Position numbers and translations under genes: made by a program. From contig NZ_BOOW01000018.1 in NCBI RefSeq assembly GCF_016863435.1, forward strand, positions 1 through 64,000: a stretch of DNA of 64,000 bases, written 5' to 3'. Below, one piece after another: positions 6,417 to 32,718 of the stretch (positions within the stretch are counted from its first letter, which is position 1; every line of letters begins with the position of its first letter). Source of the DNA: Sinosporangium siamense. Its GTDB lineage: Bacteria; Actinomycetota; Actinomycetes; Streptosporangiales; Streptosporangiaceae. The notes beneath the pieces were generated by a model. That model was not told the origin of the DNA, ran no database searches, and saw nothing but the letters and a program-made list of their open reading frames with translations.

Positions 6417-6455
6417 GCTTTCTTCGCTCCTTGAGCTTTTCGCCCGAGCTCTTGT

Positions 6456-8261: not shown

Positions 8262-8263
8262 AA

Positions 8264-8295: not shown

Positions 8296-8303
8296 CCTGC
8301 CGA

Positions 8304-9578
8304 TTACTTCAGGAGCTGGCCCTTGTCTCCGACGATGCGGGACGACTGGATGCCGTTCGCCTTGCTGTAGACCCCGTGCGTCTCACCGTCGAAGTACGGC
8401 GAGCTGATGTGGTCCACGCGGTTGTTGGCGTCCTGGTCGTGGAAAACGCTGGTGACGCCGTTGATGTAGCCATAACGCTTGGTGTTGTCGTAGCGGATCA
8501 CCCACGGGCCGCCGTCGGCGCCGCCGGTCATCGCGCACTTAAGCGCCACGTGGTCGGCGACCTTGTAGTCGCTGATCTTGTAGGTCTTCGCCAGCGGCTT
8601 GCCGGTGCAGAACTTCGGCGTCACACCGGTGAACGGCTTGTCGCCGTCCGGGTGCGGCGACCCCGGGTAACCGAAGGCGATGACCGGCTCGCCGATCTTC
8701 TGGTTCCAGGCGAAGCCGAGCGCGCCGACCGCCGAGGCCAGGCTCCCGGTGTCCTTGGCCGCGCCCACGATGTAGCGGTTGCGGTAGTAGGCCGAGCCCT
8801 TGGTCCAGTAGTCGCCGGGATACTTGGCGGCGCCCTCGTTGTACTGCTCCTGAGCGGTCTTGCCGCCCGGGATGTCGATGATCTCCTCGGAGTAGGAACG
8901 CTTGACGCCGTTCCACTCGGAGTAGTCCTTCCGGTCGACGTCCTTGGCGCCGATCTCGGAGAAACCGTTGTAGACCGCGACGAACGCGTAGTCCTGGTCG
9001 TAGTCCTCGTAGACGTCGAGCGCGTAGGAGGTGACCGCCTGCTTGCCGACGTAGATGCCGTAAGGGGCCTTGCCCTGGTAGTACGAGGGAACGAAGACCC
9101 AGCGGTCCAGGACGTCCTTGTTGCCTTCCATGTCGTATACGCAGTGCCCGGCGGTGGCGACCAGGTTGCCGTAGCGCGACTGGACGGACGCGCCGGAACA
9201 CCAGCGGTACTCGCCCTTATGGTCGACGAAGAAGACCTTGCCGATGGTCCTCGGCAGGTTGACGTTCTTGACCTTGGCGGTCGTGGCCGGCTTCGGGCCG
9301 ATCATGCCTGGCTTGCCGTCGGTCACGTCACCGCTGCTGCGAACCAGCTTGGTGACGTCCTTGGCGTCCCAGACATACTCCTGGGCCTTCCTCATGGCCG
9401 CGCCGTTGGCGTCCAGCCAGAAGCGGGCTGCGCCGTACGCCTCGGCGGGGGAGGAAAGCAGGAGGTCGGAGGCGTAGGCGGGGGACGCCTGCGCGGGGCC
9501 GCCGAATGCGGAGGCGGCGAGTACGGCTGTCGCCGCCAGGGCGCCTAGGGGGAGTAGGCGCTTGGCACGGTTGGACAC
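8304..9578 (-). CDS. Secreted trypsin-fold protein, catalytic Ser replaced by Asp
   Basis: 424 residues with a Sec signal peptide (MSNRAKRLL, hydrophobic core, cleavage after AQAS). The trypsin/glutamyl-endopeptidase-like fold is recognisable: WCSGAS, the His motif NLVATAGHC, and the Asp motif DQDYAFV. At the serine motif GxSGGP the codons read GGC GCC GAC GGC GGC CCG TGG, that is G-A-D-G-G-P-W, so the nucleophile is Asp. Both disulfide pairs seen in the family are kept (WC..GHC and FCTG..LKCAM). It is probably exported and catalytically dead, or chemically altered. It is the last of three related genes on this strand (see 9717-11255 and 11655-12839). Confidence 0.85.
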   Translation of the reverse strand: MSNRAKRLLPLGALAATAVLAASAFGGPAQASPAYASDLLLSSPAEAYGAARFWLDANGAAMRKAQEYVWDAKDVTKLVRSSGDVTDGKPGMIGPKPATTAKVKNVNLPRTIGKVFFVDHKGEYRWCSGASVQSRYGNLVATAGHCVYDMEGNKDVLDRWVFVPSYYQGKAPYGIYVGKQAVTSYALDVYEDYDQDYAFVAVYNGFSEIGAKDVDRKDYSEWNGVKRSYSEEIIDIPGGKTAQEQYNEGAAKYPGDYWTKGSAYYRNRYIVGAAKDTGSLASAVGALGFAWNQKIGEPVIAFGYPGSPHPDGDKPFTGVTPKFCTGKPLAKTYKISDYKVADHVALKCAMTGGADGGPWVIRYDNTKRYGYINGVTSVFHDQDANNRVDHISSPYFDGETHGVYSKANGIQSSRIVGDKGQLLK

Positions 9579-9630
9579 GGCAACTCTCCAGGTGCTGTGA
9601 AGAAGTCTTGCGGCTTTACCCCAGAAAAGG

Positions 9631-9662
9631 CCGTGGGGCCCGGCAGATGCCGAGCCCCACGG
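9631..9662 (-). terminator. Terminator after the middle protease-like gene
   Basis: CCGTGGGGC pairs with GCCCCACGG with an inner GGCA/TGCC helix. On the minus strand it is followed by CCTTTTC, and on the plus strand by TTTTT. It sits 55 bases after the stop at 9717 and before the next start at 9578, so the three protease-like genes are likely separate transcripts. Confidence 0.75.
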
Positions 9663-9716
9663 TTTTTAGCGCTTTGGTTCGAACCCAGGGTTTGGACCCC
9701 TGCGTCCGGGCGGCGA

Positions 9717-11255
9717 CTACTTGAGCACTTCGCCGTTCGGGCCGACGATCTTGCCGGACCAGAGAGCAGCAGCCTTGTCGTAAACGCCCTTGGTCTCACC
9801 GTCGAAGTAGGCCGAGGCCACGGTGTCCCAACGCTCGTTCTTGTCGGTGTCACCGATGACGCCGGTCACACCGTTGATGTAGCCGAGACGCTTGGCGCTG
9901 GTGTAACGGTAGATCCAGGGACCACCGTCAGAGCCACCGGTCAGGGCGCCGCTCTTGATGCCGACGAGCTCCTCGGCCTTCAGGCTGAGAGCCGTAGCCT
10001 TGACGGTCTTGCCGTACGCCCACTTGAGCACAGTGCCGCTGTAGGGACGGTTGCCGTCGGGGTGCTCGCCACCCGGGTAGCCGAAGACGAAGACCGGGAT
10101 GCCCAGCTTCTGGTTCCAGGCGAAGCCCTGCGAACCAACGTTGCTGTGCAGGGTGCCACGGTCGACAGCCTTGCCGATGACGTACTTGTCGATGTACCAC
10201 TCGGCGTCGGCACCGGGCTTCACCCACTGCTTCACGAAGTAGTGGCTGATGAAGTAGTTGCCCTTGCCGTCCGTGGACTTGGTGCCGCGCGGCTTGTCCT
10301 TGTCGGCCTTCTTGTCGTCAACGTGGGCCTTGTACTGGGCCTCGGTGACGGGCTCGTTGACCACGTAGGCCTGCGCACCAGGCTTGTGCACTTCCGGCTT
10401 GTCGGTCGTGGCGTCGTACACCGACTTGATGACTTCCTTCGGAGCGTAGACCGCACCGGGGTAGTCGGGGCCAACCGGAGCCGGGTCAACCTTGGACTTG
10501 TACTCGCCAGTCCCGCCCTTGGCCAGCCACTCGTCGTAAGCCTTCTGGTCGACCTTGACCTTGTCGATCCACTTGTCGCCGATCCACTTGTCGTAGTCGG
10601 CCTTGCTCACAACCTGCTTGTCGCCCAGCGAGAAGCCGTTGTAGACGTTGACGAACGCGTAGTTCTTGTCAAAGTCCTCGTAGACGTCGAAGTCGTAGTG
10701 GGTGAAGGCCTGCTTACCCACGTAGACGCCCCAGGGAGCCTTGCCCTGGTAGTAGCCCGGGATGAAGATCCACTTGTCCAGGACGTCCTTGTTGCCGTCC
10801 ACGTCGTAGACGCAGTGGCCGGCGGTGGCAACCAGGTTGCCGTACTTGGACTGGATGGACGAGCCGGTGCACCAGTAGGCCTTGCCATCCTTGAGGAAGA
10901 ACACCTTACCGGTGGTCTTCGGCAGGTTGACGTTCTTGACCTTGGAGGTCGGCGCAGTCGACTGGCCGATCAGACCGGGCTTGCCGTCCGAAGCCGGAGC
11001 ACCGGAGGAGCCCAGCGTGTGACGCTTGACGGCCTTGTAGTCAAAGGCGTACTGCGTCGCGCGCTTGAGGTCGTCGCCCTGGGACTTCAGCCAGAACTCG
11101 GCGGCGCTGTAAGCGACGGCCGGGTTGGCGGCGAGCTGGTCGGTGGCGACCACGGGGGCGGCGGAAGCGGGGGCGGCCAGGCCGGCGCCGATCATCGCGG
11201 CGGCGGCGATGGTGCCACCCAGGGGCAGAACCAGGCGCTTAACTCGGGTGTTCAT
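9717..11255 (-). CDS. Secreted trypsin-fold pseudoprotease with large insert
   Basis: 512 residues with a Sec signal peptide ending in PASAA. It is closely related to the product of 8304-9578 (shared NLVATAGHCVYD, KNVNLP, FGYPGG, YFDGET). The His motif is intact, but the Asp motif reads DKNYAFV (codon AAC, Asn) and the serine motif reads G-S-D-G-G-P-W (codon GAC, Asp). The two Cys of the C-terminal disulfide seen in both relatives are also missing (LKWAYG and IKSGAL). An extra ~90-residue Lys/Asp-rich segment (~residues 225-330) separates the two barrels. The reading frame is clean and codon use is strongly biased, so the gene looks maintained, probably as a binding or inhibitor-like protein. 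Confidence 0.85.
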   Translation of the reverse strand: MNTRVKRLVLPLGGTIAAAAMIGAGLAAPASAAPVVATDQLAANPAVAYSAAEFWLKSQGDDLKRATQYAFDYKAVKRHTLGSSGAPASDGKPGLIGQSTAPTSKVKNVNLPKTTGKVFFLKDGKAYWCTGSSIQSKYGNLVATAGHCVYDVDGNKDVLDKWIFIPGYYQGKAPWGVYVGKQAFTHYDFDVYEDFDKNYAFVNVYNGFSLGDKQVVSKADYDKWIGDKWIDKVKVDQKAYDEWLAKGGTGEYKSKVDPAPVGPDYPGAVYAPKEVIKSVYDATTDKPEVHKPGAQAYVVNEPVTEAQYKAHVDDKKADKDKPRGTKSTDGKGNYFISHYFVKQWVKPGADAEWYIDKYVIGKAVDRGTLHSNVGSQGFAWNQKLGIPVFVFGYPGGEHPDGNRPYSGTVLKWAYGKTVKATALSLKAEELVGIKSGALTGGSDGGPWIYRYTSAKRLGYINGVTGVIGDTDKNERWDTVASAYFDGETKGVYDKAAALWSGKIVGPNGEVLK

Positions 11256-16770: not shown

Positions 16771-19700
16771 TCAACTGAAGACCTCGTGCAGCATCTGCTC
16801 CAGCTCGGCCTCGTGGGCGGCATGCGAACCCACCGCCGGGGACGAGTTGGGCTTACGCGACACCCTGCGGAGCTTGCGCCCATCGAAAATGTCAGGATTC
16901 TCGGTCAGCTTGAGCGCCAGGAACGGCCACGGCCCCATGTTGACCGGCTCGTCCTGAGCCCAGACCAGCTCCACGTCACTGCCGTAACGCGACAGCTCGG
17001 CCTGCAGCGGGTTGCCCGGGAACGGGTAGAGCCTCTCCAGCCGGACAATCGCGACATCCGTACGGTTCTGCTTGTCCCTGGCCGCGGCGAGATCGTAGTA
17101 GATCTTGCCGGAGCACAGCACGACCCTGCGCACCGCGGACGCGTCGACCGTCTCGTCCCCGATGACCGGGCGGAACACACCGCTGGTGAACTCCGCCGTC
17201 GGCGAGGACGCCGCCTTGTGCCGCAGCAGCGACTTCGGCGTGAACACCACCATCGGACGGCGGCGGTTCGACAACGTCTGCCACCGCAGCAGGTGGAAGT
17301 AGTTCGCCGGCGTCGTCGGCTGGGCCACCGTCATGTTGTCCTGCGCACACATCTGCAGGAACCGCTCGATCCTGGCCGACGAGTGGTCCGGCCCCTGGCC
17401 CTCGTAGCCGTGCGGCAGCAGCAGCACGACCGACGAACGCTGACCCCACTTCTGCTCACCCGACGAGATGAACTCGTCGATGATCGACTGAGCGCCGTTG
17501 GCGAAATCGCCGAACTGCGCCTCCCACGCGACCAGAGCCTCGGGGCGCTCCACGCTGTAGCCGTACTCGAAGCCCATCGCCGCGAACTCGCTCAGCAGCG
17601 AGTCGTAGACGTAGAACTTCGTCGTGCCGTGGTTGAACGACTTGAGCGGCGTGTGGTCCTCACCCGTGACCCGGTCGACGAGCACCGCGTGCCGCTGACC
17701 GAACGTGCCACGCCGCGAGTCCTGCCCGACAAGGCGCACCGGGTGGCCGTCGATCAGCAGCGACCCGAAGGCCAGCAGCTCACCGGTCGCCCAGTCGATC
17801 GCGTCATCGGCGATCATGGCCCCGCGGCGCTGGAGCAGCGGCGCGAGCCTCGGGTGGATCGTGAAGCCTTCGGGCAGGTTGAGCTGCGTGTCGATGACCC
17901 GCTTGACCGTCTCATCGTTGATCGCGGTTGGCGTGTCCTTGTGCGACCACGGGATGACCTCGGGGTCGACCGGACGGGCGAACTCGCCGGTCTTCTCCCT
18001 CACCGCCTCACGCGTCTCGGTGAACGCCCGCTCAAGCTGCTCCTGGTAGTCGCGGAGCGCCTGCTCGGCCTCCTCCACCGTGATGTCGCCCCGGCCGATC
18101 AGCGCCTCGGTGTAAAGCTTGCGGGTCGACCGCTTGGCGTCGATCAGGTCGTACATGAGCGGCTGGGTGAAGCTCGGGTTGTCCATCTCGTTGTGCCCGC
18201 GGCGGCGGTAGCACACGAGGTCGATCACGACGTCCTTGCGGAACGCCTGGCGGTATTCGAACGCCAGCTTGCCGACCCGGCTCACGGCCTCGGGGTCGTC
18301 GCCGTTCACGTGGAAGATCGGCGCCTGGATCATCCGCGCCACGTCGGTCGCGTAGACACTCGACCGCGACGAGGCCGGCGAAGTCGTGAAGCCCACCTGG
18401 TTGTTCACCACGATGTGCACCGTTCCGCCCGTGCGGTAACCGCGCAGCTGCGACAGGTGCAGCGTCTCGGCCACCACACCCTGACCCGCGAAAGCGGCGT
18501 CGCCGTGCACAAGCACCGGGAGTACGGTGAAGCCCTCTTCGCCCCGCTCAAGCAGGTCCTGCTTCGCCCGCACCACACCCTCGAGCACCGGGTCGACCGC
18601 CTCCAGGTGCGAGGGGTTGGCGACCACGGACGCCACGATCTTCTTGCCCGTCGGCGACACGAAGTCGCCATGGGCACCGAGGTGGTATTTCACGTCACCC
18701 GAGCCGTGAGCACTCCGCGGGTCGAGGTTGCCCTCGAACTCGCCGAAGATCTGGCCGTAGGACTTGCCCACGATGTTGGCCAGCACATTGAGCCGGCCGC
18801 GGTGCGCCATGCCGATGACGACCTCGTCGAGCTTCCAGTCGGCCGCCTCGGAGATCACCGAGTCGAGCAGCGGGATCAGCGACTCGCCGCCCTCCAGGGA
18901 GAACCGCTTCTGCCCCACGAACTTGGTCTGCAGGAACGTCTCGAACGCCTCGGCGGTGTTCAACCGGCTGAGGATGTTGAGCTGCTCCTCGCGGTTCGTC
19001 TTGGCGTGCGGCAGCTCGACCTTCGACTGGATCCAGGCGCGCTCCTCGGGCCCCTGAATGTGCATGTACTCGATGCCGACCGTGCGGCAGTAAGTGTCGC
19101 GCAGCACACCCAGGATCTCGCGCAGCTTCATCACCGGCTTGCCGCCGAACCCGCCCGTCGGGAACTCCCGCTCCAGGTCCCACAACGTCAGACCGTGGGA
19201 CTGGATGTCAAGGTCCGGGTGCTTGCGCTGGCGGTATTCAAGCGGGTCGGTGTCGGCCATCAGGTGACCGCGCACACGATAGGCGTGGATCAGCTCGATG
19301 ACACGGGCGGACTTCGCCACGTCTTCGTCGTGCGTCGCCGAGATGTCCGGCACCCAGCGCACCGGCTCATACGGAATGCGCAGCGCCTCGAAGATCTCGT
19401 CATAGAAGCGGTCGGCGCCGAGCAGCAACTGGTGGATCCTGCGCAGGAAGTCACCTGACTGCGCGCCCTGAATAATGCGGTGGTCATAGGTCGACGTCAG
19501 CGTCATGACCTTGCTAACCGCGAGACGCGTCAGCGTGTCAGGCGAGGCCCCCTGGTATTCCGCGGGGTATTCCATCGCGCCGACACCGATGATCGTGCCC
19601 TGCCCCGGCATCAGCCTCGGCACAGAGTGCACCGTGCCGATCGTGCCCGGGTTGGTCAGGCTGATCGTCGTGCCCACAAAGTCGTCCACGCTCAGCTTGC

Positions 19701-20442
19701 CCGAACGCGACTTGCGGACGATCTCCTCGTAGGCCATCCAGAACTGCCGGAAGTCCATCGTGTCCGCGGCCTTGATCGACGGCACGAGCAACTGGCGGCT
19801 GCCGTCGCTCTTCTGCACGTCGATCGCGAGCCCGAAGTTCACGTGCTCCGGCTTCATCAGGACGGGCTTGCCGTTGACCTCGTTGAACGAGAAGTTCATC
19901 TCGGGCATCGACTTGAGTGCCCGGATGACCGCATAACCGATGAGGTGGGTGAACGACACCTTCCCGCCGCGTCCCCGCAGCAGGTGGTTGTTGATCACGA
20001 TCCTGTTGTCGATCAGCAGCTTGGCGGGAACCGCACGCACACTTGTGGCGGTCGGGACCGTCAGCGACGAGTCCATGTTGACCGCGGTGCGCGCGGCGGC
20101 ACCCTTAAGAGGCACCTCTTGCGCCCCAGCCGGCACCGGCGTCACCGGCTTCGGCTTCTCGGCCTTCGGCGCCGCTGGCGCCGGAGCGGCCTGCGGCTGT
20201 GGCGCAGGCGCGGCCTTGGGTGGAGAACTAATGGTGGAGGTGGCGGCCGTCGTGCCGGTCGTCGCCTCCCGGGCAGGGTTACGGCCCGGCCCATAGTCGG
20301 GGTGGTAGTCGGCAAAGAAGTTCCACCAGGCCCGGTCCACAGACTCGGGATCCTGGAGATACTTCTGGTATAGCTCGTCGACAAGCCATTCGTTTTGACC
20401 GAAGCTTGCCAGCGGGTTTGTCCGCGACGACTCAGACGACAC
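16771..20442 (-). CDS. kgd: Fused 2-oxoglutarate decarboxylase/dehydrogenase E1-E2 (Kgd)
   Basis: 1223 residues, the length of mycobacterial Kgd/SucA. In order: an N-terminal E1 segment ([13 protein letters not shown] ... WWNFFADY), a Pro/Ala linker, an E2-type succinyltransferase domain (catalytic [12 protein letters not shown]), then the thiamine-diphosphate E1 domain ([44 protein letters not shown]). It converts 2-oxoglutarate in the TCA cycle. In relatives it is regulated by the FHA protein GarA, which is not in this window. GTG at 20442 gives the family-typical start ([15 protein letters not shown]); a TTG 18 codons upstream also keeps the frame open. Confidence 0.95.
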
Positions 20443-20865
20443 GGCGGAAATCGCCCTCTTCCGCAGATCGGCGTTGATGATAGAGAACCTGTCCAAGGCT
20501 ACTCGCCCGGACTCCTACCGTGCGCCCACCTGGACGCACCTCACTGCTGATCCTCCCAGGACCGTCCAAACTGGTCACGCCGGGGTAGCCCTTCTTGGTG
20601 GTGTGGTTCTCGTCACTTTTTGGTAACAGCCCCGGGACCGCGAACCTTCCCGCGTACGGCAGAGCCCGGTGCGCCCTCCTGGACCCATGTGACCTGAGTT
20701 CACGCAGGTTGCTCAAGTGACCGTTGATGACACCTGGGAATCCGACACACTACGCCGGCACCACCACTCGAGGCGTGGACGAGCAGCCCGGCTTTACGGC
20801 CGACCCCTAACCCACGCTCGCCCCCCAAACCCCACTTTTTCCACACCCGGCCACACTGGCCCGTT

Positions 20866-21828: not shown

Positions 21829-21867
21829 GTGCGGTCTGTTTTGCGTTGCCTACGTTCGGTCCGATAG
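21829..21867 (+). other. Interrupted upstream start of the RHS gene (GTG, 12 codons, TAG)
   Basis: GTG at 21829 has the best ribosome site in the area (GGAGGGGG, 5-7 bases away) and is in frame with the RHS gene. It encodes MRSVLRCLRSVR, an ideal basic n-region for a signal peptide, and then meets TAG at 21865-21867 directly followed by the ATG used for the RHS protein. The hydrophobic core of the signal peptide lies after the stop. Either the TAG is a nonsense mutation or the protein restarts at the adjoining ATG. Confidence 0.6.
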
Positions 21868-24800
21868 ATGTCCTGGCCAGCCGTGACGGTATTTGTCCTC
21901 ACTGTTCCCGGCCTGATGCAAATCTCCGCACAGCCTGTTTGGGCCGAACCTCGATCCGCGCCCCAGCCCACCTTGGAACAGATCCGGGCGATGATGCCCC
22001 AACAATTGACGGGCACCGCCGCCGGACGCCCCCACTTAGTGGACTCCTCGGCGACAAGAGCCCAAGTCGCCAGCGGCGACAAGGAAGGCAATCGAATCAA
22101 GGCACCTAAAAGACCGAAGAATTCATTGCCGGTAGAGGGTCGATTTATTGACGAGAATGCAGTGGCGCGCCGACTGGTCCCGGGATCAGGCCTTGTCGTT
22201 CCAGAAGGTGTTCATCGCTCCGAGAGGCCGAATGAAATTTCTGGGAAGGGTCGACCGATAGTCCAGAATGAACCGGTCAAGAAATGTAGAGACTATTCGC
22301 AGTGGTCGGAATGGTATCAGTATGCAAACGGCGACTACGTCACTTATAATTCTCGGATTTGGCAGGCCTATCAAGCCAACAGCAACTTCGGTCCACCGGG
22401 AGTTACAGGACCGTGGTTGGATCGTGGCGAGTGTGTGATCGGAGCGCCTCCCACGGCAGTGGCCGTCAAGCCTGACGATGAGGCTTTGATCTCTTCTCTA
22501 ACCCCAACCCTGCGGGCGGACAGTCCTCCGACCGGCCACTGGTCCACGACCTTTGCTTTCAAGTTCACGGTTTGCGACAACCAGAGCATGACAGGTTCGA
22601 GTTGTGTAAGCTCGAATTTTGACGAGCCGTTCTGGACTGTTCCGGCAGGACACTTGAAGTGGGCCAAGGAATACTGGTGGACGGCTACAGTAAGGGAGTC
22701 CATCGATGGGCTCACCAATACGACGGCGAAGCGGTCGTTCACCACGGGTGTGCGTCAGCCCACCATCACTTCAAAGCTTTCCGCTCGCGGCGCCAACGGC
22801 CAAGAGTTTCATCCGCTTGCAGGAAACTACACCACCTCTTTCACTGACGCCGTGGTCAATACGGTGGGACCGCCCTTGTCGGTGGTGCGGTCCTACAACA
22901 GCATGGACCCACGCAGGACAGGCATGTTCGGTGCCGGCTGGTCGACCCGGTGGGACATGCACATCCGGCAGCAGACGCTCGCGGGGCAGCCGACACTGCT
23001 GGTCACCTATCCCGACGGGCGGGAGGTGCGCTTCGCCGACAACGGGGATGGCACTTTCCAGCCACCACCAGGCATGCATGCCACGCTTGGCACGGTGACC
23101 GGCGGCGGTTGGCGGCTCACAGACAAGTCCTCCACTACGATCTACCACTTCGATGCCCAAGGGCGTCTTAGCTCTGCCACTGACAGGCGTGGGCGAAGCC
23201 AGACCCTTACCTATGACGGGAACGGCAAGCTTGTCACCGTGATAGGCGCCGGCGGACGTTCATTAACGTTCAACTGGACTGGTGGTCAGGTAACTTCGGT
23301 CGCGACGAATCCTGTGGAGGGGAGTCCGCTCACGTGGACGTATGAGTACACCCAGGGCAGGCTTACGAAGGTCTGCTCCCCGGCTGCTGCTCCGAACTGC
23401 ACTCTCTACGATTATGGAGTTGGATCCACTTACCGAACCACGGTCCTCAATGAGGATCCGACAGGTTACTGGCGTCTCAATGAGACGACCGGAGCCACGG
23501 CTTCGAATCTGGGCTCCGAGGGAGGTACAGGGGATTACTGGACTGGGCCTATAAGTGTTGCTGGAGCGCTTGAGGGCACTCCCGACACAGCGGTCGACAT
23601 GAGCGATGAGACCATTATCCTTCCTAAAGGCGTGCTGCACCGCCGCGAAAAGCAGATCTCTCTAGAACTCTGGTTTAAGACCACGGCATCCGGAGTGGTA
23701 GTGGCTCCGGGAGGAGACGGGGATTTTTCCGGGACCCAACAGGGATCGGCGTTGTATGTGGGCCTCGACGGAAAGCTGCGAGGTTCCTGGAACGAGTCGG
23801 CTACACCGATCACGTCGGCAGCTCCGGTCAACAATGGCCAATGGCATCATGCTGTTCTCACCGGCGCCGCCTCAGACCAGAAACTTTATCTAGACGGTGC
23901 TTTGGTCGGCTCGTTGAATGCGCCTGTAGAGATCCCCGACGACTTCGTTACGCTCGGTTACGGCATGGCCTTGCCTGGTCATTCCCCGAGTGTGCCGGGC
24001 ACTTCAGGAACCAGGACCGCTTTCCCCTTCACCGGCCATCTTGACGAAGTCGCCGTCTATGACCGGCCGCTCAGCCTGGCTGAGGTCCAGCAGCACTATG
24101 ACGCCCGTTTGGCAGTACCCCACTTGATGACCAAGATCACCTTGCCGTCCGGCAGAACTTGGGCGGAGAACACGTATGACCCGGCGACTGACAGAGTCAA
24201 GACCCACACCGACCAGCACGGCGGCGTCTGGCAGGTCGGTGTGCCGGCCTATACGGCGGCTACTGGGCGATCAACGGTCATCGTGAAAGATCCTCGGAAT
24301 AAGAACCTGACATATGAATACGACGCCTGGCGCGGCAACCGACTGATTCGGGAGATCGACCAGTTGGGGAGGGCGACCGGCTATGCCTACGACACTGGCG
24401 GTTTCATCTCAAGAATCACCGACCGCAACGGCCTGCAGACCCGCCAGACGTTCGACAAGCGCGGCAATCTGCTCACCAAACTGGACTGCGATCCCGCTGT
24501 CACGGGATCGTGCCAGGCCATACCTCACCGCTACACCTATCACCTGAATGCAACCGACGAGTTCGACCCGCGCAACGACCAAGTCATCACTCACCGCGAC
24601 CCCCGTTCCACCAGTGCGACCGACAACACCTACGCCACCACCTGGGAGTACAACCAGTACGGCGAGCAGATCAAACAGACCTTCCCTGCCACCTCGGACT
24701 TTCCCAACGGCCGTAGCAGCACCACGACCTACACCGACGGCACCGAGCCGGCCGAAGGTGGCGGTCAGACCCTGGCTGGCCTGGTCAAGACGAATACCGA

Positions 24801-27800
24801 CCCCAAGGGCAATGCCGTCTCCTACAAATACACCTCTGCAGGTGATCTGGCCGAGGAGACAACGGCCACTGGACTGATCCTCCGCCACGAGTACGACACC
24901 CTGGGGCGGGCGACCGCAAAAACCGAAGTCTCCCAAGCCAACCCAACCGGGGTGAGAACCACCTATACCTACAGCCCGCTCGGCCAGCTCCTCACCCAGA
25001 CGGCCCCAGGCGTATTGAACGAGGTCTCCCGGGTGACGCACACCGCCGAGACCCGCCACACTTACAACCCCGACGGCCTGACCCTCACCACCAGCGTGGT
25101 CGACCTGACCGGCGGCAACCCCGAGCGCAAGATCACATACACCTACGACCCGCGCGGCAGACTGGAGACAGAGACAGACCCGGAAGGCGGCGTGGTCTCT
25201 CACACTTGGGACACCACCGGCGCCCACACCAGCTCGACCGATCAATTGGGCAATAAAACCGTCTTCGCCTACACCTTCAGAGGTGAACTCGCCTCGAAGA
25301 CCCTGAAGAACTGGACCGGCAGCCCGGTGGCCCCCCAAGCCCCCGCCGACCTGGTCCTTGAGTCCTACGCTTACGACTTCGGCGGACGCTTGGCCAGCAC
25401 GACAAACGCGGTGGGCCGTATTACTGCCAAGACCTACTTCCCCGACGACAAAGTCGCAACCGTCAAGGCTGTCAACGCGCGGACCAACGCAGCCACCACC
25501 GGCCGGGACATCCCACTGGAAGCCAACACCTACGACGCGGCCGGTAACCTCATCATGCAGGTCACGGGCAATGGACGCACGACCACGAACTACGTCTACG
25601 ACGCGGCCAACAGGCTCACCACAAAGACCGTCGACCCCAACGGCCTGGCCCGCGCGACGTCCTTCACTTACGACGCGAACGGCAACGTCACCCGCGAGAC
25701 GAAGTCCGCCGCAGGCACCAGCCGTACCGAGAGCGTCGAGTACGCCTACAGCCCCGGCGACCAGCAGACCCGCCAAACCGTCGAAAACGGTGCCCAAGAC
25801 CTAGAGACCACTTGGACCCGAGACGACCGCGGCCTGGTCACTGCTATGACTTCCCCACGCGGCAACCTCCCCGGCGCCACCGGATTCAAGACCGAGTACA
25901 CCTACGACAAGGTCGGCCGACTTGTGGCGGATACCGCGCCGGAAGTTCAGGTTGAGAGACACGGAGCCGCCTCTGCCAGCCGGCCCGTCACCATGCACGG
26001 TTATGACAACGCCGGCAGCAAAACCCATGTGGTCGATGCCGAAGGACGTACGAGCACCACCAATTACGACCGTCTCGGCCGGACTACCTCCACTGTCGGC
26101 GCCACCTACTTCGCTCCACTAGGCAACGCACCTGCGCCCCTGACTGGCGCGGTCGCCCATTGGAAGATTGATGAGGGCACAGGGACCGCCCTCGCCGACA
26201 CCATCGGTTCACGCACGGCCACCTTGAGCGGAAGCACTGCCTGGGTGCCCGGCCGTGCAGGCTCCGGCGTACAGTTCGGCAGCAATACTCACGCTGTGAC
26301 AGCTGCCCCCGTTCTCACCACCAACGCCAGCTACACCGTAAGTGCGTGGGTGCGGCTGACTCACGGTGACCTCAACGCCACCGTGAGTCAGGACGGCGCA
26401 ACCAGGAGCGCGTTCCAACTTGCCTACTCTGCAGCAGATGGCAAGTGGCGCCTGGCGACGTACGACACCGACAGCGCCACTGCTGTTGAGAAGAGCGCGG
26501 TGTCCAACCGGCGCGCAAAGCTGAACGACTGGACCCACCTCGTCGGCGTATACGACGCGGCTACCGGCCACATCCGCCTGTACGAGAACGGCGAACAGGT
26601 CGCCTCCAACGCTGTGACCGCTACCTTCAACGCCGCAGGCGGCTTCCTCATCGGCAGCAGCAAACAGAACGGTGCCTACGAGCACTCCTTCCGCGGCGAC
26701 CTGGACGAGGTCCAGGCGTACGGCAGAGCGCTCACCGACCAGGAGATCCGTTCCCTGTCCGGAATCACGCCCAAGGTGAGTTACCTCTACGATGCGGCCG
26801 GGCGAGAGACCAAGCGAACCGACGCCCGCGGGTCGAGCTGGACCACTGAATACGACGCTTTGGGCAACCGCGTCCGCATCACTGAGCCTGGCCCCAACGG
26901 CCAGCCCGGCGGACAGAGGGTGTCTGAGTACAACACACTTGGGGAGCAGACCGGCGCCGTCGACCCGACAGGCGCCAGGACCGGGGCTACCTACGACGAT
27001 CTCGGCCGTATGGTCACCTCGACAAGTGTCGAACGCGAACCGACGCTCAGTACGCTCGTCACGAGATTTGAGTACAACGACGCTGGCAACAAGACCAAGG
27101 AAATCCGGCCCGGCAGTCGCACCACCCTTTATCAGGTGAACGCCGTCGGAGAAGTGACCTCCGAGACCAACCCGCTTAGCAATGCAACACAGTTCGTCTA
27201 CGATCTAGTCGGCCGCAGCACCAAGGTGACCAACCCTCTCGGCAACGCGACCGTCACTGAGTACGATCTGGCGGGCAGGAAAACCGCAGTTAAGGATCTA
27301 AACAGCACAGGGGCCGTGCTTCGGGAAACGTCCACCAGTTATGACGCCGACGGCAATCCCGTTGCGGAGACCTCGGCTGAGGGCCATATGGTCGACCGGA
27401 CGTTCGATGCCCTAGGCAGGATGACCCAACTTGTTGAGCCAGTGACCGCGACTCAGTCGATCACCACCACCTTCGGCTACGACACAGCGGGCAACCGCAC
27501 CCGCACCACTGACGGGCGCGGAAACGTGATCTGGACTGCCTACAACAGCCTCGGCATGGTGGAAACCGTCACCGAGCCGGCTACCACTGCGTACCCCAAC
27601 CTCGCCGACCGCACCTGGACCAGCGTCTATGACGCAGGCGGCAACGCGGTCACGACCGCTGCACCCGGCGGGGTCCGCATCGACCGGACCTTCGACCACC
27701 TGGGCAACCTCACCCGCCAGACCGGTACCGGCGCAGAGACCGCCACAGCCGAGCGGACGTTTGGCTACGACCTGGCCGGCCGGCCTACCTCGATCGGCGA

Positions 27801-29391
27801 TTTCGCGATCGATTACAACGACCGCGGGCTCATGACAAGGGTGCTCAAGGGAGCGACTCAGCAAGGTGCCTACTCCTATGACGGGGTGGGCAACCTTCTG
27901 CAGCGCGTTGATGCCGCCGGAACGGCCAACTTCACCTGGGATACCGCCGACCGTCTCGCGACGGCGACCGACCCAGTCGTCAACCGCACCCTCACCTATG
28001 GCTACGACACGGCCAACCAAATGACGTCGGTGACCGCTACCGGCCAGGCCAGCCAGCAGACGTTCGCTTACGACGATATGGGTCGGCGCACCAGCCACAC
28101 GGTGAAGCGCGGCAACGGTGTCCAGCTCGCAAAGATCACTTACGGGTGGGACAAGGACGACAACCTCACCTCCAAGACCACTGTGAGCCTGGCAGGCGCA
28201 GGCGCCAACACTTATGCGTACGACAAGGCAGGGCGCCTGACCTCTTGGACGGATCCCGCCAACACCACCACTGCCTACGAGTGGGATGCCGCCGGCAACC
28301 GCACAAAGGCCGGGAACACAGTCTTCACCTACGACGAACGCAACCGCCTCACCTCCGGCGGTGGTACCGACTACACCTACACTCCCCGCGGCACGGTAAA
28401 TGGCGAGACCACCAATGGGACCACCAAGAATCTGGTGTTCGACGCGTTCGACCAGTTGACCAGCGACGGCACCACCACCTATGCCTATGACGCGCTCAAC
28501 CGAGTCAGCTCCCGCACCGAAGGTGGTTCCGTTCAGCACTTCACCTACAGCGGTCTGGCTAACGACCTAGCCGCCGTCACCGACGCCGGCGGCGCGGTGC
28601 AGGCGAAGTACAGCCGTGACTCCGCAGGGCAGTTGCTGGGCCTGCAGGAAGGCGGTGGCGCTGCGGTCGCCGCCGCGAACGACCTGCGTGGAGACCTGGT
28701 GGCGACCTTCTCCTCCACCGCGGTTGTCGACTCCTTCGCCTACAACCCGTTCGGCGAGGTGGTCGCAGAGAGCGGAACGCGGAAGAACATCGGCTATCAG
28801 GGGGAATACACCGACCCGGCCTCCGGCAAGGTCAACATGGCGGCGCGCTGGTATCGGCCCGGCACCGGAGGGTTCGTCTCCCGGGACACCATGACCCTTG
28901 ATCCCGCCCCCAGCGTTCAGGCCAACCGCTACACGTACGCCAACGCATCCCCGCTCACGAATGTCGACCCAACCGGAAATTACGCGCTCGAGGTGGTCAA
29001 CTCCTCCTACACCTCTCCCCCTGGATCCCAATCCAGCCCGAAGCCGACCTCGTGCCAGTACTGCATGAACTGGGGGAAAGAGTGGGAGGTGGATACCGGT
29101 GGAATGCCGCCGTGGTGGTACATGAACAACGACCTCCAATATGTGAATCATCATGATGCTGAAGCGGTCCGCTGGAATCCCATCATGTCCGATGAGGAGG
29201 CCCGCGCCGCCGGAGTAATGCCCAATGGCCGGGAGTCGGAGATAGATGGCTACTGGAAGCTGGATAAAAACGCACGAGAGCTTCATTTAGGGCTGTATGA
29301 GTCGGGAATGTTTGCGAGCATTAAGACGCCTATATGTGTAAAACAGAGGCGTGCAACCTGTAAGGACTATCCTTTCCTCATCATATGCTGA
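21868..29391 (+). CDS. Giant secreted RHS/YD-repeat protein (WapA-like)
   Basis: 2507 residues. In order: hydrophobic signal core (1-26); a chitin-binding CBM5/12-like patch (~138-180, YSQWSEWYQYANGDYVTY); a DUF6531-like start of the RHS shell (~320-370, SVVRSYNSMDPRRTGMFG); YD repeats; a LamG-type domain (~529-741, YWRLNETTG ... LDEVAVYDRPL); more YD repeats; a second LamG (~1427-1630); YD repeats; and the RHS core block ending YTYANASPLTNVDPTG (~2292-2371). After DPTG comes a unique 136-residue tail with CQYC and a Cys-rich end. Such proteins encapsulate a C-terminal toxin and deliver it to neighbouring cells. The stop overlaps the next ORF (ATGCTGA). Confidence 0.88.
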   Translation: MSWPAVTVFVLTVPGLMQISAQPVWAEPRSAPQPTLEQIRAMMPQQLTGTAAGRPHLVDSSATRAQVASGDKEGNRIKAPKRPKNSLPVEGRFIDENAVARRLVPGSGLVVPEGVHRSERPNEISGKGRPIVQNEPVKKCRDYSQWSEWYQYANGDYVTYNSRIWQAYQANSNFGPPGVTGPWLDRGECVIGAPPTAVAVKPDDEALISSLTPTLRADSPPTGHWSTTFAFKFTVCDNQSMTGSSCVSSNFDEPFWTVPAGHLKWAKEYWWTATVRESIDGLTNTTAKRSFTTGVRQPTITSKLSARGANGQEFHPLAGNYTTSFTDAVVNTVGPPLSVVRSYNSMDPRRTGMFGAGWSTRWDMHIRQQTLAGQPTLLVTYPDGREVRFADNGDGTFQPPPGMHATLGTVTGGGWRLTDKSSTTIYHFDAQGRLSSATDRRGRSQTLTYDGNGKLVTVIGAGGRSLTFNWTGGQVTSVATNPVEGSPLTWTYEYTQGRLTKVCSPAAAPNCTLYDYGVGSTYRTTVLNEDPTGYWRLNETTGATASNLGSEGGTGDYWTGPISVAGALEGTPDTAVDMSDETIILPKGVLHRREKQISLELWFKTTASGVVVAPGGDGDFSGTQQGSALYVGLDGKLRGSWNESATPITSAAPVNNGQWHHAVLTGAASDQKLYLDGALVGSLNAPVEIPDDFVTLGYGMALPGHSPSVPGTSGTRTAFPFTGHLDEVAVYDRPLSLAEVQQHYDARLAVPHLMTKITLPSGRTWAENTYDPATDRVKTHTDQHGGVWQVGVPAYTAATGRSTVIVKDPRNKNLTYEYDAWRGNRLIREIDQLGRATGYAYDTGGFISRITDRNGLQTRQTFDKRGNLLTKLDCDPAVTGSCQAIPHRYTYHLNATDEFDPRNDQVITHRDPRSTSATDNTYATTWEYNQYGEQIKQTFPATSDFPNGRSSTTTYTDGTEPAEGGGQTLAGLVKTNTDPKGNAVSYKYTSAGDLAEETTATGLILRHEYDTLGRATAKTEVSQANPTGVRTTYTYSPLGQLLTQTAPGVLNEVSRVTHTAETRHTYNPDGLTLTTSVVDLTGGNPERKITYTYDPRGRLETETDPEGGVVSHTWDTTGAHTSSTDQLGNKTVFAYTFRGELASKTLKNWTGSPVAPQAPADLVLESYAYDFGGRLASTTNAVGRITAKTYFPDDKVATVKAVNARTNAATTGRDIPLEANTYDAAGNLIMQVTGNGRTTTNYVYDAANRLTTKTVDPNGLARATSFTYDANGNVTRETKSAAGTSRTESVEYAYSPGDQQTRQTVENGAQDLETTWTRDDRGLVTAMTSPRGNLPGATGFKTEYTYDKVGRLVADTAPEVQVERHGAASASRPVTMHGYDNAGSKTHVVDAEGRTSTTNYDRLGRTTSTVGATYFAPLGNAPAPLTGAVAHWKIDEGTGTALADTIGSRTATLSGSTAWVPGRAGSGVQFGSNTHAVTAAPVLTTNASYTVSAWVRLTHGDLNATVSQDGATRSAFQLAYSAADGKWRLATYDTDSATAVEKSAVSNRRAKLNDWTHLVGVYDAATGHIRLYENGEQVASNAVTATFNAAGGFLIGSSKQNGAYEHSFRGDLDEVQAYGRALTDQEIRSLSGITPKVSYLYDAAGRETKRTDARGSSWTTEYDALGNRVRITEPGPNGQPGGQRVSEYNTLGEQTGAVDPTGARTGATYDDLGRMVTSTSVEREPTLSTLVTRFEYNDAGNKTKEIRPGSRTTLYQVNAVGEVTSETNPLSNATQFVYDLVGRSTKVTNPLGNATVTEYDLAGRKTAVKDLNSTGAVLRETSTSYDADGNPVAETSAEGHMVDRTFDALGRMTQLVEPVTATQSITTTFGYDTAGNRTRTTDGRGNVIWTAYNSLGMVETVTEPATTAYPNLADRTWTSVYDAGGNAVTTAAPGGVRIDRTFDHLGNLTRQTGTGAETATAERTFGYDLAGRPTSIGDFAIDYNDRGLMTRVLKGATQQGAYSYDGVGNLLQRVDAAGTANFTWDTADRLATATDPVVNRTLTYGYDTANQMTSVTATGQASQQTFAYDDMGRRTSHTVKRGNGVQLAKITYGWDKDDNLTSKTTVSLAGAGANTYAYDKAGRLTSWTDPANTTTAYEWDAAGNRTKAGNTVFTYDERNRLTSGGGTDYTYTPRGTVNGETTNGTTKNLVFDAFDQLTSDGTTTYAYDALNRVSSRTEGGSVQHFTYSGLANDLAAVTDAGGAVQAKYSRDSAGQLLGLQEGGGAAVAAANDLRGDLVATFSSTAVVDSFAYNPFGEVVAESGTRKNIGYQGEYTDPASGKVNMAARWYRPGTGGFVSRDTMTLDPAPSVQANRYTYANASPLTNVDPTGNYALEVVNSSYTSPPGSQSSPKPTSCQYCMNWGKEWEVDTGGMPPWWYMNNDLQYVNHHDAEAVRWNPIMSDEEARAAGVMPNGRESEIDGYWKLDKNARELHLGLYESGMFASIKTPICVKQRRATCKDYPFLIIC

Positions 29392-29972
29392 AGTATGCCA
29401 AGGAGATCGCGGATGCGGCGAAGCGGTTTGGGGTTAACAAATATGCGTTGACCGCAACCATGTTGTATGAGAACCAGTTCACACATTTCGAGGTGAAGTA
29501 TGGGAAGGCGGTGTGGCTGGCTTCCTTCCTGGCCAATGCGGCTACTTTGAAGCCGCAGAACGCTTCGGTCGGGGTCTCGCAATTGGAGATATATAGAGTG
29601 AAGCAGTTGATGAATGACAGGGATCTGAAGAAGCACTTCACTGCAAAAGAGCGAAGTATGTCCACAGTGCAGATCTATAATAGATTGACCCAGGATCCCG
29701 AGTACTCGATCAAGATGGCTGCTGCTCGAATGACATATGTCAAGAGGGAATTCGGGCTAGATGACTGGATGGCGACGATCGCTTATTGTGGGTGCGCTAG
29801 TAGCAATAGAGCAAATTTCCGCCGGTGGGTTGCCAGTGGATATCAATCTGCATTCGCTCCGAGCAAGGAGGCGCAAAAGCGATACAATAAAATGTTTGCA
29901 AAAAACGGCATAAGTGGGCGGGCGTTCGAGTATTGGAATTGCGTGGATAATAAGTGCTGGTGGCTGACATGA
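29385..29972 (+). CDS. Lysozyme/SLT-like domain protein, likely RHS effector
   Basis: 195 residues. The layout resembles soluble lytic transglycosylases: a helix ending in a Glu (ALTATMLYEN, candidate catalytic E29), ASVGVSQLEIYRVKQL in place of the usual GxxQ(I/L) motif, DPEYSIKMAAARMTYVKREFG, and MATIAYCGCAS in place of AYNAG. It would cleave peptidoglycan. It has no signal peptide of its own and starts inside the RHS stop in the -1 frame, so it is either translationally coupled or the displaced C-terminal toxin domain of the RHS protein. AT-richer than its surroundings. Family match is by pattern only. Confidence 0.65.
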   Translation: MLKYAKEIADAAKRFGVNKYALTATMLYENQFTHFEVKYGKAVWLASFLANAATLKPQNASVGVSQLEIYRVKQLMNDRDLKKHFTAKERSMSTVQIYNRLTQDPEYSIKMAAARMTYVKREFGLDDWMATIAYCGCASSNRANFRRWVASGYQSAFAPSKEAQKRYNKMFAKNGISGRAFEYWNCVDNKCWWLT

Positions 29973-30499
29973 AAGACGAATCCTGCGGTATTTATAAGAG
30001 CGGAGAGCGGCGCCGTCGATTCATGTATCGTTCGGGATGTGTGATATTGAGTTTGTCTCTGGGGGTGGCTCTCGCTTCATGTGGAAGGGAGGAGCACTTC
30101 GATCCAGCTGCAGTAGCTGACGTTAGGTCGATCGGTAAAGTGCTATCTGAAGCGAATAGCGAATGGTATTCGGGAGACAATTGGTGGCCACCGCTAAGGT
30201 CCTTTGGTCGCGTGCTCGTGCTGGATGTGGGAGTAGTTGAACCCCGAGGCGCTATTGAAAAGGCTCGCAAGCTGTTGCTAGAACGCGGATGGAAAATCGA
30301 TTTGCCGGTCAAAGGCGAAGAACTCTATATGAGCTCCAGAGGGCGGCAGGGGGCCGAGCTGCTCATTTTTAGCGTGAGATCTTATGTTCAGGAATGGGGC
30401 CTGGAGAGTTTGGAAGCGCCAAGCGAAGTGAAGGCAATCAAAGAGGCGCGACAAATGTCCTCCTCGGACGGTCTTCTGCTAGTCCACGTTCAGCCTTGA
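29969..30499 (+). CDS. Small lipoprotein, candidate immunity protein
   Basis: 176 residues from the ATG that overlaps the preceding stop (ATGA). A lipoprotein signal is plain from the internal Met at 30023: MYRSGCVILSLSLGVALASC, lipobox LASC. The mature part (~140 residues) matches no known family. Location on the outer face of the membrane fits protection against a cell-wall hydrolase, and the position immediately after the SLT-like gene is that of an immunity gene. AT-rich like its neighbour. The real start may be 30023, which gives a normal 20-residue signal peptide. Confidence 0.65.
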   Translation: MKDESCGIYKSGERRRRFMYRSGCVILSLSLGVALASCGREEHFDPAAVADVRSIGKVLSEANSEWYSGDNWWPPLRSFGRVLVLDVGVVEPRGAIEKARKLLLERGWKIDLPVKGEELYMSSRGRQGAELLIFSVRSYVQEWGLESLEAPSEVKAIKEARQMSSSDGLLLVHVQP

Positions 30500-30804: not shown

Positions 30805-30822
30805 TGCAAAGAGATCTTTGCA
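30805..30822. promoter_or_regulatory. Palindromic operator of the ArsR-type gene
   Basis: TGCAAAGA-GA-TCTTTGCA is a perfect palindrome with 8-base arms, ending 16 bases before the regulator start codon. ArsR-family repressors bind such dyads over their own promoters, so self-repression of the regulator/MFS operon is the likely role. Confidence 0.65.
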
Positions 30823-30838
30823 TGCTTACCATGCGGGC

Positions 30839-31426
30839 ATGGAGGAGATCTATCACGTCACGGATCCGCGCACGCTCAAGGCGGTGAGTCATCCGCTCAG
30901 GGTGCGGATGTTGGGGTTGTTGCGGGCGGAGGGGCCGGCTACCGCTTCGGAGTTGGGGCGGCTGGTTGGGGAGAGTTCGGGGGCTACCAGCTATCACCTG
31001 CGGGAGCTGGCGAAGTACGGGTTCATTGAGGATGATCCGGGGCCGCGGGTGGGGCGGGAGCGGCGGTGGCGGGCGGTGCATCGGTATACGTCGTGGAGTG
31101 TGGCGGAGTTAGGGGAGACGCCGGAGGGGCGGGCGGCGGTTCGGGCTATGCGGGGGCGGCAGCTTGAGGGGCTTGTGAGGGATTTTGAGGTTTGGAGGGA
31201 GGGGGTGGAGGAGGCGGGAGCGCTATGGGATGAGGCTTTGGGGATGTCGGATTCGGTGGTGGAGTTGTCGGCCGAGGGGGTGCGGCGGTTGGGGGAGAGG
31301 CTTTGGGAGGTTTTGGGGGAGGTGATTGCGGAGGATGTAGAGAAGAAGGCGCGGGGGGAGACTAAGCAGGTGGGGGTTTATTTGGCGTTCTTGCCTTACT
31401 CGGGTGCTGAGGGGGAGGGGCGGTGA
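30839..31426 (+). CDS. ArsR/HTH-20-type transcriptional regulator
   Basis: 195 residues. The winged helix occupies ~8-85: DPRTLKAVSHPLRVRMLGLLR, then the recognition region SELGRLVGESSGATSYHLRELAKYGFIED. The C-terminal half is helical and charged, probably for dimerisation or ligand sensing; no metal-site CxC motif is present, so a metal sensor is unlikely. Its last four bases overlap the MFS start (GTGA), so both are one operon. The regulator probably controls export of the MFS substrate. Codon use is unusually rich in G at third positions. The start has no clear ribosome site. Confidence 0.85.
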   Translation: MEEIYHVTDPRTLKAVSHPLRVRMLGLLRAEGPATASELGRLVGESSGATSYHLRELAKYGFIEDDPGPRVGRERRWRAVHRYTSWSVAELGETPEGRAAVRAMRGRQLEGLVRDFEVWREGVEEAGALWDEALGMSDSVVELSAEGVRRLGERLWEVLGEVIAEDVEKKARGETKQVGVYLAFLPYSGAEGEGR

Positions 31427-32718
31427 GTGTTACCGGGCGCTATTTGCTGGTTAGTTTTCTTACCTGGTTGTCGCCTGGGTTGACGGTGGCGGCGATGGTT
31501 CTGCTTATGGGGGCTCGAGGGCAGAGTATTGCGGTTATCGGGGGGCTGCTGGCGGTTTATTCAGTGGTTGTTATCGTGCTCGAGCTGCCTACTGGGGGGT
31601 TGGCGGATGTTTGGGGGCGGCGGGTGGTGTTGGCGGCGGCTGCGGGGTTTGGGGCAGCTGGGGCGTTGGTTATGGCGTTTGCTTCGTCGTTTTGGGGGTT
31701 CTTGGGGGCGATGGTTTTTATGGGGGTGGGGCGGGCGCTTTCCAGTGGGCCTGCCGAGGCTTGGTTTGTGGATGCCTTGCAGGCGGAGAAGGGGGAGGGG
31801 GTGGATTTGCGGCCGGGGTTGGCTCGGGGGCGGACGATGGATGCCGTGGGTGTTTGTTTGGGGACGTTGGTTGGGGGGACTGTGCCGCTGTTCGTGCCCC
31901 GGGAGGCTTCCGTGGCTTTGGCGGTGCCCATGGTTTTGGGGGCGGCGGCTTCGGGGGTTTTGCTGGTTGTGGCGTTGATGGTGATGACGGAGGCTCGGCG
32001 GGAGCGGGCCAAGTTTGGGGAGGTTATGCGGGCTGTGCCGTACACGGTGGGGATGGGGGTGCGGCTGGCTGGGGTTGATGGGGTTTTGCGGAGGTTGATG
32101 GGGGTGAAGGTGGCGATTGGGGTTGTGTTGGGTGGGGTGGAGCTTCTTACGCCTGGGATGGTGCTTCAGCTCACTGGGCGGCCCACTCTGGCCGGCACGG
32201 TTTATGCGGTGATCGCGGCGCTTGGGTTTGTGGGGAGTGGTTTGGGGAGTTTTGTGACGCCGTGGGCCGCGAGGAGGGTGGGGGGTTCTCGGCAAGGAGT
32301 GCGGGGGGCTGTTGTTGGGGGTTTGGGGGCTTGTCTGGGCATTGGTGGTGTGGCGGCCGCCGGGGTTTTGGGGGAGGTGGCGGGGCTTGTCGCAGCCGCC
32401 CTGGCGTACGTGGTGTTGTTTGCGGGGCTGGCCATGCTTCAGGTGTTGTGTGCGGAGATGTTGCACCATCGGGTCACCTCTGGGGAGAGGGCGACCGTGA
32501 TGTCCGCTCAATCGCTCTCGCTGCAGGTTGGTGGGGTGTGCGCAAGTGTGGCCCTCGGTGCGCTCGCGGCCGGAGTCGGTACGGCAGGAGCCTTCTTGGC
32601 GTCCACCTCGGTGATGTGCTTGTCGCTGCTTCTCTTCGTTCGGGTTCCGTTCAGCCGCGGCCGTGAGGGGCATCCCAGTCCAGGGCAGGTCCCACTGGCA
32701 CAACCTGGCTCGGATTGA
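31423..32718 (+). CDS. MFS transporter
   Basis: 431 residues with about 12 hydrophobic segments. The MFS loop motif appears as GGLADVWGRRVV after helix 2. The protein probably exports a drug-like compound, by analogy with ArsR/MFS pairs, but the substrate is unknown. The GTG start overlaps the regulator stop. The last 68 bases overlap the convergent gene at 32651, so the two mRNAs are antisense to each other at their ends. The coding strand is extremely G-rich (runs of GGGG, Gly mostly GGG), unlike most genes in the window. Confidence 0.85.
   Translation: MSVTGRYLLVSFLTWLSPGLTVAAMVLLMGARGQSIAVIGGLLAVYSVVVIVLELPTGGLADVWGRRVVLAAAAGFGAAGALVMAFASSFWGFLGAMVFMGVGRALSSGPAEAWFVDALQAEKGEGVDLRPGLARGRTMDAVGVCLGTLVGGTVPLFVPREASVALAVPMVLGAAASGVLLVVALMVMTEARRERAKFGEVMRAVPYTVGMGVRLAGVDGVLRRLMGVKVAIGVVLGGVELLTPGMVLQLTGRPTLAGTVYAVIAALGFVGSGLGSFVTPWAARRVGGSRQGVRGAVVGGLGACLGIGGVAAAGVLGEVAGLVAAALAYVVLFAGLAMLQVLCAEMLHHRVTSGERATVMSAQSLSLQVGGVCASVALGALAAGVGTAGAFLASTSVMCLSLLLFVRVPFSRGREGHPSPGQVPLAQPGSD

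What the first reader, a model, noticed from the sequence alone, without database searches (positions are those of the whole stretch)
21829..30499. RHS toxin carrier with its lysozyme-like effector displaced into an overlapping -1 frame, followed by a lipoprotein
The RHS protein ends 136 residues after its DPTG boundary. Its stop codon overlaps the ATG of a lysozyme/SLT-like ORF that has no signal peptide. That ORF in turn overlaps, by ATGA, a lipoprotein gene. The gene order carrier, peptidoglycan hydrolase, surface-anchored lipoprotein fits a toxin/immunity set acting on the cell wall. The in-frame stop upstream of the SLT ORF is at 29361, so a single-base change or frameshift between 29364 and 29391 would fuse carrier and hydrolase. 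It may be a two-polypeptide delivery system or a recent split. AT-rich composition of the two small genes suggests acquired cassettes.
Basis: partly seen in the sequence, partly recalled or inferred. Interest (0 to 1): 0.82.

Follow-up and report, generated by a model that had tools for sequence, protein, structure and literature searches.

The report
Broken RHS wall-cutting toxin, immunity kept
This is a damaged copy of a bacterial weapon that probably cuts the cell walls of rivals: in relatives the cutting tip is part of the big RHS protein, here the reading frame is broken just before it, while the neighbouring gene that probably protects the producer is still intact.

Summary
The three ORFs and both overlaps are real. 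The middle ORF is a lysozyme/SLT-type domain. Its family profile matches the type VI muramidase Tse3, with E29 and Q66 on Tse3's Glu250 and Gln280. The third ORF is a lipoprotein; its family follows the toxin domain in 26 of 26 relatives' loci (20 of them helped build that profile), and a search with the window's protein alone finds 16 of the 26. The toxin/immunity reading holds.

The two-polypeptide reading does not. The split occurs in 0 of 26 relatives' loci: the domain shares a frame with the carrier's DPxG boundary in 23 and with the linker in 3. The window's linker is 10 nt shorter than in 7 of 7 relatives with the same anchor, which shifts the frame. There is no slippery heptamer and no well-placed Shine-Dalgarno. 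A second lesion, an in-frame stop at 21865-21867, cuts the carrier's leader where a congener's frame is open.

Best explanation: a recently inactivated RHS muramidase toxin with its immunity lipoprotein kept. Similar decay is common: the toxin domain is broken in 5 of 26 relatives' loci.

The parts
21829..21864 (+). Probable original start (GTG behind a GGAGG-type Shine-Dalgarno) and the charged n-region of the leader, 12 codons
   Evidence: Sequence printed; all 12 residues identical in the congener L078/L109 with 32 of 36 bases identical, i.e. past coding; of 23 other family carriers printed, 16 show MRR and 3 MR[GA] at a similar place, and in 4 the printed stretch begins further in
21865..21867 (+). 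In-frame stop codon that separates the n-region from the rest of the carrier (lesion 1)
   Evidence: the congener's frame is open here
21868..29391 (+). RHS carrier ORF, 2507 aa: RHS repeats, two LamG3 stretches, DUF6531, Rhs_assc_core
   Evidence: 65% identical to the congener's carrier over residues 1-2371
28966..28977 (+). DPTG boundary where tips are exchanged
   Evidence: similarity to the congener's carrier ends at residue 2371; the congener's tip is PT-HINT plus deaminase
28978..29388 (+). Pre-toxin tail, 137 aa, homologous to the tails of relatives (motif around DEEA..G.MPNGR...W)
   Evidence: Alignment with 26 relatives' upstream stretches
29359..29391 (+). Broken junction: 26 nt from the anchor Cys codon to the domain start against 36 nt in 5 of 5 relatives with that Cys, and 17 nt from the [FY]P anchor against 27 nt in 7 of 7; frame shift (lesion 2)
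29385..29972 (+). Muramidase/SLT-fold toxin domain in the -1 frame, 195 aa, no signal peptide seen; all seven invariant columns (I8 E29 G63 Q66 A113 Y134 R166) kept
29969..30499 (+). Probable immunity lipoprotein (lipobox LASC); an inner ATG at 30023 is another plausible start

Best explanation
The locus descends from an ordinary RHS polymorphic-toxin gene with its immunity gene. The toxin tip is a peptidoglycan glycan-strand hydrolase of the SLT/lysozyme fold, fused in frame to an exported RHS carrier; the downstream lipoprotein guards the outer face of the producer's own membrane. In this genome the toxin gene has recently been inactivated. A net 10-nt shortening of the linker before the tip puts the muramidase out of frame, and an in-frame stop in the n-region of the leader damages export of the carrier. 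The muramidase ORF, if translated at all, would stay in the cytoplasm, away from its substrate. The lipoprotein is intact and probably works as a stand-alone shield against siblings or relatives that still carry the toxin. Shown: homology, SLT-type domain, in-frame fusion in relatives, both frame breaks, conserved downstream gene. Inferred: enzymatic activity, immunity, the direction and recency of the changes, and loss of delivery.
Against: No relative shares either lesion, so the order and age of the changes rest on parsimony and on one congener for the leader. ATG 21868 directly follows the stop and could still start a carrier with a hydrophobic leader lacking K/R. ORF2 has an ATG exactly at the junction and a 7-nt overlap, which would permit coupled re-initiation. 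The toxin domain shows no decay of its own. No reads were available to exclude assembly error.
Confidence: 0.8

Rival explanations
1. Functional two-polypeptide system: carrier and muramidase are made separately by coupled translation across the 7-nt overlap, and the muramidase is packed into the RHS cage or exported with it.
For: ORF2 is intact, its start lies exactly at the domain start, and the overlap would allow re-initiation. RHS tips are cut from their carriers in studied systems (recalled).
Against: Split in 0 of 26 relatives' loci; no signal peptide seen on ORF2; no well-placed Shine-Dalgarno; the carrier's own leader is interrupted; the linker is 10 nt short.
Confidence: 0.08
2. Programmed -1 frameshifting gives a small share of fused carrier and toxin.
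For: ORF2 is in the -1 frame, with a stop-free shift window 29364-29391.
Against: No slippery heptamer in frame in 29300-29391; only half matches, the nearest at 29370 and 29373. Relatives need no shift because they are in frame.
Confidence: 0.03
3. Assembly or sequencing error at one or both places; the gene is really intact.
For: The genome is a draft of 84 contigs; no reads were seen.
Against: A net 10-nt loss is not a homopolymer slip, and a second, independent lesion sits 7.5 kb away. Neither place is near the start of the contig or the end of the stretch held.
Confidence: 0.09

Closest known systems
RHS/WapA (YD-repeat) polymorphic toxins with exchangeable C-terminal tips and linked immunity genes (PMC3482391 and PMC3967940, passages seen)
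   Same: RHS repeats, Rhs core, DPxG boundary, variable tip, immunity gene directly downstream; the congener has the same carrier with another tip.
   Different: In this genome the tip is out of frame and the leader is interrupted. In the 2012 survey (PMC3482391; first 300,000 of 357,715 characters held, passages for six terms seen) the one place with 'lysozyme' is Tox-Glucosaminidase and the one with 'lipoprotein' is Imm65, called the only lipoprotein immunity of that collection.
Orphan Rhs-CT/immunity modules of Salmonella (PMC3967940; abstract and passages seen)
   Same: A toxin reading frame cut off from start and export signals, followed by an immunity gene.
   Different: There the orphan is a displaced fragment behind a full main rhs gene. 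Here the main gene itself is broken by a small net deletion at the junction.
Tse3-Tsi3, type VI muramidase and its immunity protein (PMC3792639; abstract and passages seen)
   Same: SLT-type fold, catalytic Glu and conserved Gln columns.
TelC-TipC of Streptococcus intermedius (PMC5555719; passages seen)
   Same: A Gram-positive interbacterial toxin whose target lies on the outer face of the membrane, with an immunity protein that carries a signal sequence (inferred from the TipC-delta-ss construct).
   Different: LXG/Esx delivery and a lipid II phosphatase, not a glycan-strand hydrolase.

Membership tests
RHS polymorphic toxin | RHS repeats and Rhs-associated core ending at a DPxG-type boundary | tested here: met
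   25 RHS repeat stretches, TIGR03696 over cut-off; DPTG at 28966-28977
RHS polymorphic toxin | Tip after the boundary is exchanged between related carriers | tested here: met
   65% identity to the congener up to residue 2371, no match after; other tip PT-HINT plus Pput2613-like deaminase
RHS polymorphic toxin | Toxin domain is in frame with the carrier | tested here: not met
   ORF2 is in the -1 frame. In relatives in frame with DPxG in 23 of 26 loci and with the linker in the other 3. The window copy is filed as a broken descendant, not as a working member
RHS polymorphic toxin | Immunity gene directly downstream | tested here: met
   ORF3; homologue downstream in 26 of 26 relatives' loci, 16 of them found by ORF3 alone. 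The immunity activity itself is not tested
RHS polymorphic toxin | Export signal on the carrier | tested here: inconclusive
   Leader interrupted at 21865-21867; ATG 21868 could start a leader without K/R
RHS polymorphic toxin | Inhibits neighbours, neutralised by its immunity protein | not testable with these tools
   Needs bench assays
Tse3-type muramidase | SLT/lysozyme-like fold with the catalytic Glu and conserved Gln | tested here: met
   E29 and Q66 invariant in 22 aligned domains. Foldseek alone not significant
Tse3-type muramidase | Tse3 N-terminal domain | tested here: inconclusive
   The ORF2 model aligns with Tse3 206-388 only; the rest of the locus was not compared with Tse3's N-terminal part
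Tse3-type muramidase | Delivery by a type VI secretion system | not tested
   The domain is RHS-borne with a leader in relatives; no search for type VI genes was made
Tse3-type muramidase | Calcium sites near the catalytic Glu | not testable with these tools
   Reported for Tse3; not examined here
Two-polypeptide carrier plus toxin system | Split conserved in relatives | tested here: not met
   0 of 26 relatives' loci
Programmed -1 frameshift gene | Slippery heptamer in the overlap | tested here: not met
   None in frame in 29300-29391

The most novel reading that the evidence does not exclude
The split is adaptive: the carrier and the muramidase are expressed as two coupled polypeptides (or fused at low frequency), so that most cells keep only the lipoprotein shield and a few carry an armed toxin, a form of bet-hedging.
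Probability: 0.07. Interest if true: 0.65.

Novelty: new member of a known kind. Interest (0 to 1): 0.36.

Why it matters
It points to a toxin/immunity family so far seen here only in one actinobacterial family, Streptosporangiaceae: an RHS-borne SLT/Tse3-like muramidase paired with a lipoprotein or membrane-anchored guardian. No Pfam model other than the general SLT domain matches the toxin members, and none passes its cut-off for the lipoprotein of the window. The window copy catches a weapon just after it was disarmed while its shield is kept, one step in a series seen elsewhere in the family: intact, frame-broken, C-terminal remnant, lone immunity gene. That makes the question of why immunity genes outlive their toxins testable in named strains.

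Tried and rejected
Conserved two-gene system: rejected, 0 of 26 relatives' loci. Programmed frameshift: no heptamer. Sequence search of ORF2 alone against PDB: 0 matches; the family profile was needed.

ORF2 against genome contigs as a single sequence found nothing; a closer alignment found 8 loci. Range: ORF2 matches in 25 of 341 family genomes, the window's own included; in 3 of 394 class genomes, own included, all of the same family; by profile at E <= 1e-6 in 1 of 396 phylum genomes, the window's own. Classes and phylum were sampled, not exhausted.

Rows dropped: L036 and L037 repeat L021 and L033 and were not counted. L068's 'core' was only 39 nt and is left out of the GC comparison; L071 and L075 were not measured. 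L019 has a Cys before the domain with another motif (11 codons) and was not counted among the Cys-anchored five.

Circularity: the immunity profile (A2) was built from 20 of the 26 downstream proteins, so only L022, L025, L026, L028, L030 and L034 are independent hits; the single-sequence search gives 16 of 26 without that profile.

Literature: Rhs with Streptosporangium 1 irrelevant paper; Nonomuraea with polymorphic toxin 2; Rhs, muramidase and polymorphic toxin 16, 12 listed. Only listings were read, except passages of PMC3792639, PMC3482391, PMC3967940 and PMC5555719. I saw no description of this pair there; the library holds open-licence papers only.

Full report
WHAT IS THERE. The finding's anatomy is right. 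The RHS ORF runs from ATG 21868 to 29391, 2507 codons without a break, with 25 RHS-repeat stretches, two LamG3 stretches and a Rhs-associated core. ORF2, 29385-29972, overlaps it by 7 nt in the -1 frame, and ORF3 overlaps ORF2 by ATGA. The tail after DPTG is 137 residues. The finding's start, 21829, is a GTG behind a GGAGG-type Shine-Dalgarno, but its frame runs into a stop at 21865-21867 (sequence).

WHAT ORF3 IS. ORF3 has the lipobox LASC after a hydrophobic stretch. It has no Pfam match over cut-off. It is modelled as alpha+beta with good confidence (pLDDT 83) but without a firm structural relative. A profile of its family finds a homologue downstream of the toxin domain in 26 of 26 relatives' loci L010-L035: in 25 its match begins within 120 nt of the end of the toxin match (or of its last nearby fragment), and in L034 1219 nt away behind a transposase-like ORF. 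Twenty of these 26 proteins were used to build the profile; the other six (L022, L025, L026, L028, L030, L034) are independent hits. A search with ORF3 alone finds the neighbour of 16 of the 26 toxin loci at E <= 0.01. A simple lipobox pattern is met in 20 of 26; L018 has GSGC, L028 lacks its N-terminal part, and L019, L033, L034 and L035 (and L024, whose pattern match lies inside it) have a hydrophobic membrane anchor instead. Either way the protein would sit outside the cytoplasm, where a wall-cutting toxin acts. The immunity role is inferred from this.

THE RELATIVES ARE FUSED. ORF2 homologues occur in 25 of 341 genomes of the same family, the window's own included, giving 26 other loci in 24 genomes. 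Eight loci of named records belong to Nonomuraea, Sphaerisporangium, Streptosporangium and Planobispora, all Streptosporangiaceae (one species each). In 23 of the 26 loci the frame is open from the carrier's DPxG boundary, 200 residues or more upstream, into the domain; in L016 (contig end), L022 and L031 (stop 150 and 61 residues upstream) only the linker is seen in frame. The split at the junction is seen in none. Five loci are broken further in (L021, L022, L028, L031, L035), and so is L075.

THE JUNCTION. Seven relatives share an [FY]P anchor in the linker (L012, L014, L015, L021, L025, L027, L031); in all seven it lies 27 nt before the domain start, in the window 17 nt. Five of them also share the Cys before it: 36 nt in all five, 26 nt in the window. 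The residue three before the domain is Y, F, W or H in 26 of 26 relatives; in the window the carrier's frame ends before that point, and ORF2's frame has P there. The net loss of 10 nt explains the frame change. No X-XXY-YYZ heptamer lies in the carrier's frame between 29300 and 29391, and the best Shine-Dalgarno match before ORF2 is 4 of 6, 16 nt away.

A SECOND LESION. G571, the only genome marked 'same genus' in the lists, has the same carrier, 65% identical over residues 1-2371. Its frame is open through the region of the window's stop at 21865-21867, with all 12 residues before it identical and 32 of 36 bases identical there. Of 23 other family carriers printed, 16 show an MRR start and 3 an MR[GA] start at a similar place; in 4 the printed stretch begins further in. 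So the stop cuts off the charged part of the leader. ATG 21868 follows directly and may still start a weaker leader; this is not settled.

TIP EXCHANGE. The congener's carrier stops resembling the window's at residue 2371, just after DPTG. Its tip is a PT-HINT domain plus a Pput2613-like deaminase, and it has no match to ORF2 or ORF3. The window's tail, toxin and immunity gene have GC 50-54% against 62% for the core; in 5 of 5 relatives with a usable core (L069, L070, L072, L073, L074) toxin (47-52%) and immunity (45-53%) are also below the core (62-70%).

HOW IT MOST LIKELY WORKS. In relatives: an exported RHS carrier presents or releases a wall-cutting tip, and the anchored lipoprotein shields the producer (inferred). 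In the window: the tip is out of frame and without a leader, the carrier's own leader is interrupted, and the lipoprotein gene is intact. I conclude that the toxin has recently been lost and the shield kept. The family shows the same trend: of 29 other lipoprotein loci (the 30 that fetched, less the window's), 6 have a full toxin domain upstream, 3 a broken one, 3 a C-terminal remnant (two of them weak, E 0.02 and 0.25) and 17 none within the roughly 1.5 kb held; one of the 17 (L067) lies at a contig end. The lipoprotein is found in 48 of 341 genomes against 25 for the toxin, own genome counted in both; single-sequence searches differ in reach, so the difference is only indicative.

COMPARED WITH WHAT IS KNOWN. 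The architecture is that of RHS polymorphic toxins (PMC3482391, passages). Orphan toxin frames with linked immunity genes are known in Salmonella, where recombination with the main gene re-arms them (PMC3967940, abstract and passages). Tse3 is the nearest solved toxin by sequence profile. In the passages seen of the 2012 survey the one lysozyme-like toxin is a glucosaminidase and the only lipoprotein immunity is Imm65, so this pair looks unlisted there; I have not shown that it is unlisted everywhere.

VERDICT. The residual interest lies in the toxin/immunity family itself and in a disarmed copy with its shield kept.

Noticed in passing
21829-21868: A GTG behind a GGAGG-type Shine-Dalgarno opens the carrier's leader, but an in-frame stop follows 12 codons later and ATG 21868 comes directly after it.
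   Followed up: yes
L109 (G571:C30), 1751-11064, minus strand: The congener has the same RHS carrier with a different tip, PT-HINT plus Pput2613-like deaminase, followed by a 135-aa ORF without obvious leader, perhaps its immunity protein.
   Followed up: partly
L022, L031, L044, L061: Two immunity-family genes in a row, in L022 with a second toxin fragment between them: arrays of shields without a whole toxin.
   Followed up: partly
L043, L047, L058: Short remnants of the toxin's C-terminal end directly before a lone immunity gene (L047 and L058 weak).
   Followed up: partly
L019, L024, L027, L033, L034: A subgroup of toxin domains lacks the YCGC motif and has GxxQ[MI]Q where the others have GxxQ followed by another pair. 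Four of the five (not L027, which has a lipobox) are followed by an immunity-family protein with a membrane anchor (in L034 it lies 1219 nt away).
   Followed up: no
30818-32718: ArsR-type regulator (HTH_20/HTH_5) and MFS transporter genes overlapping by 4 nt just downstream.
   Followed up: no
16771-20496, minus strand: Multifunctional 2-oxoglutarate dehydrogenase/acyltransferase (kgd-type) gene upstream of the RHS locus.
   Followed up: no
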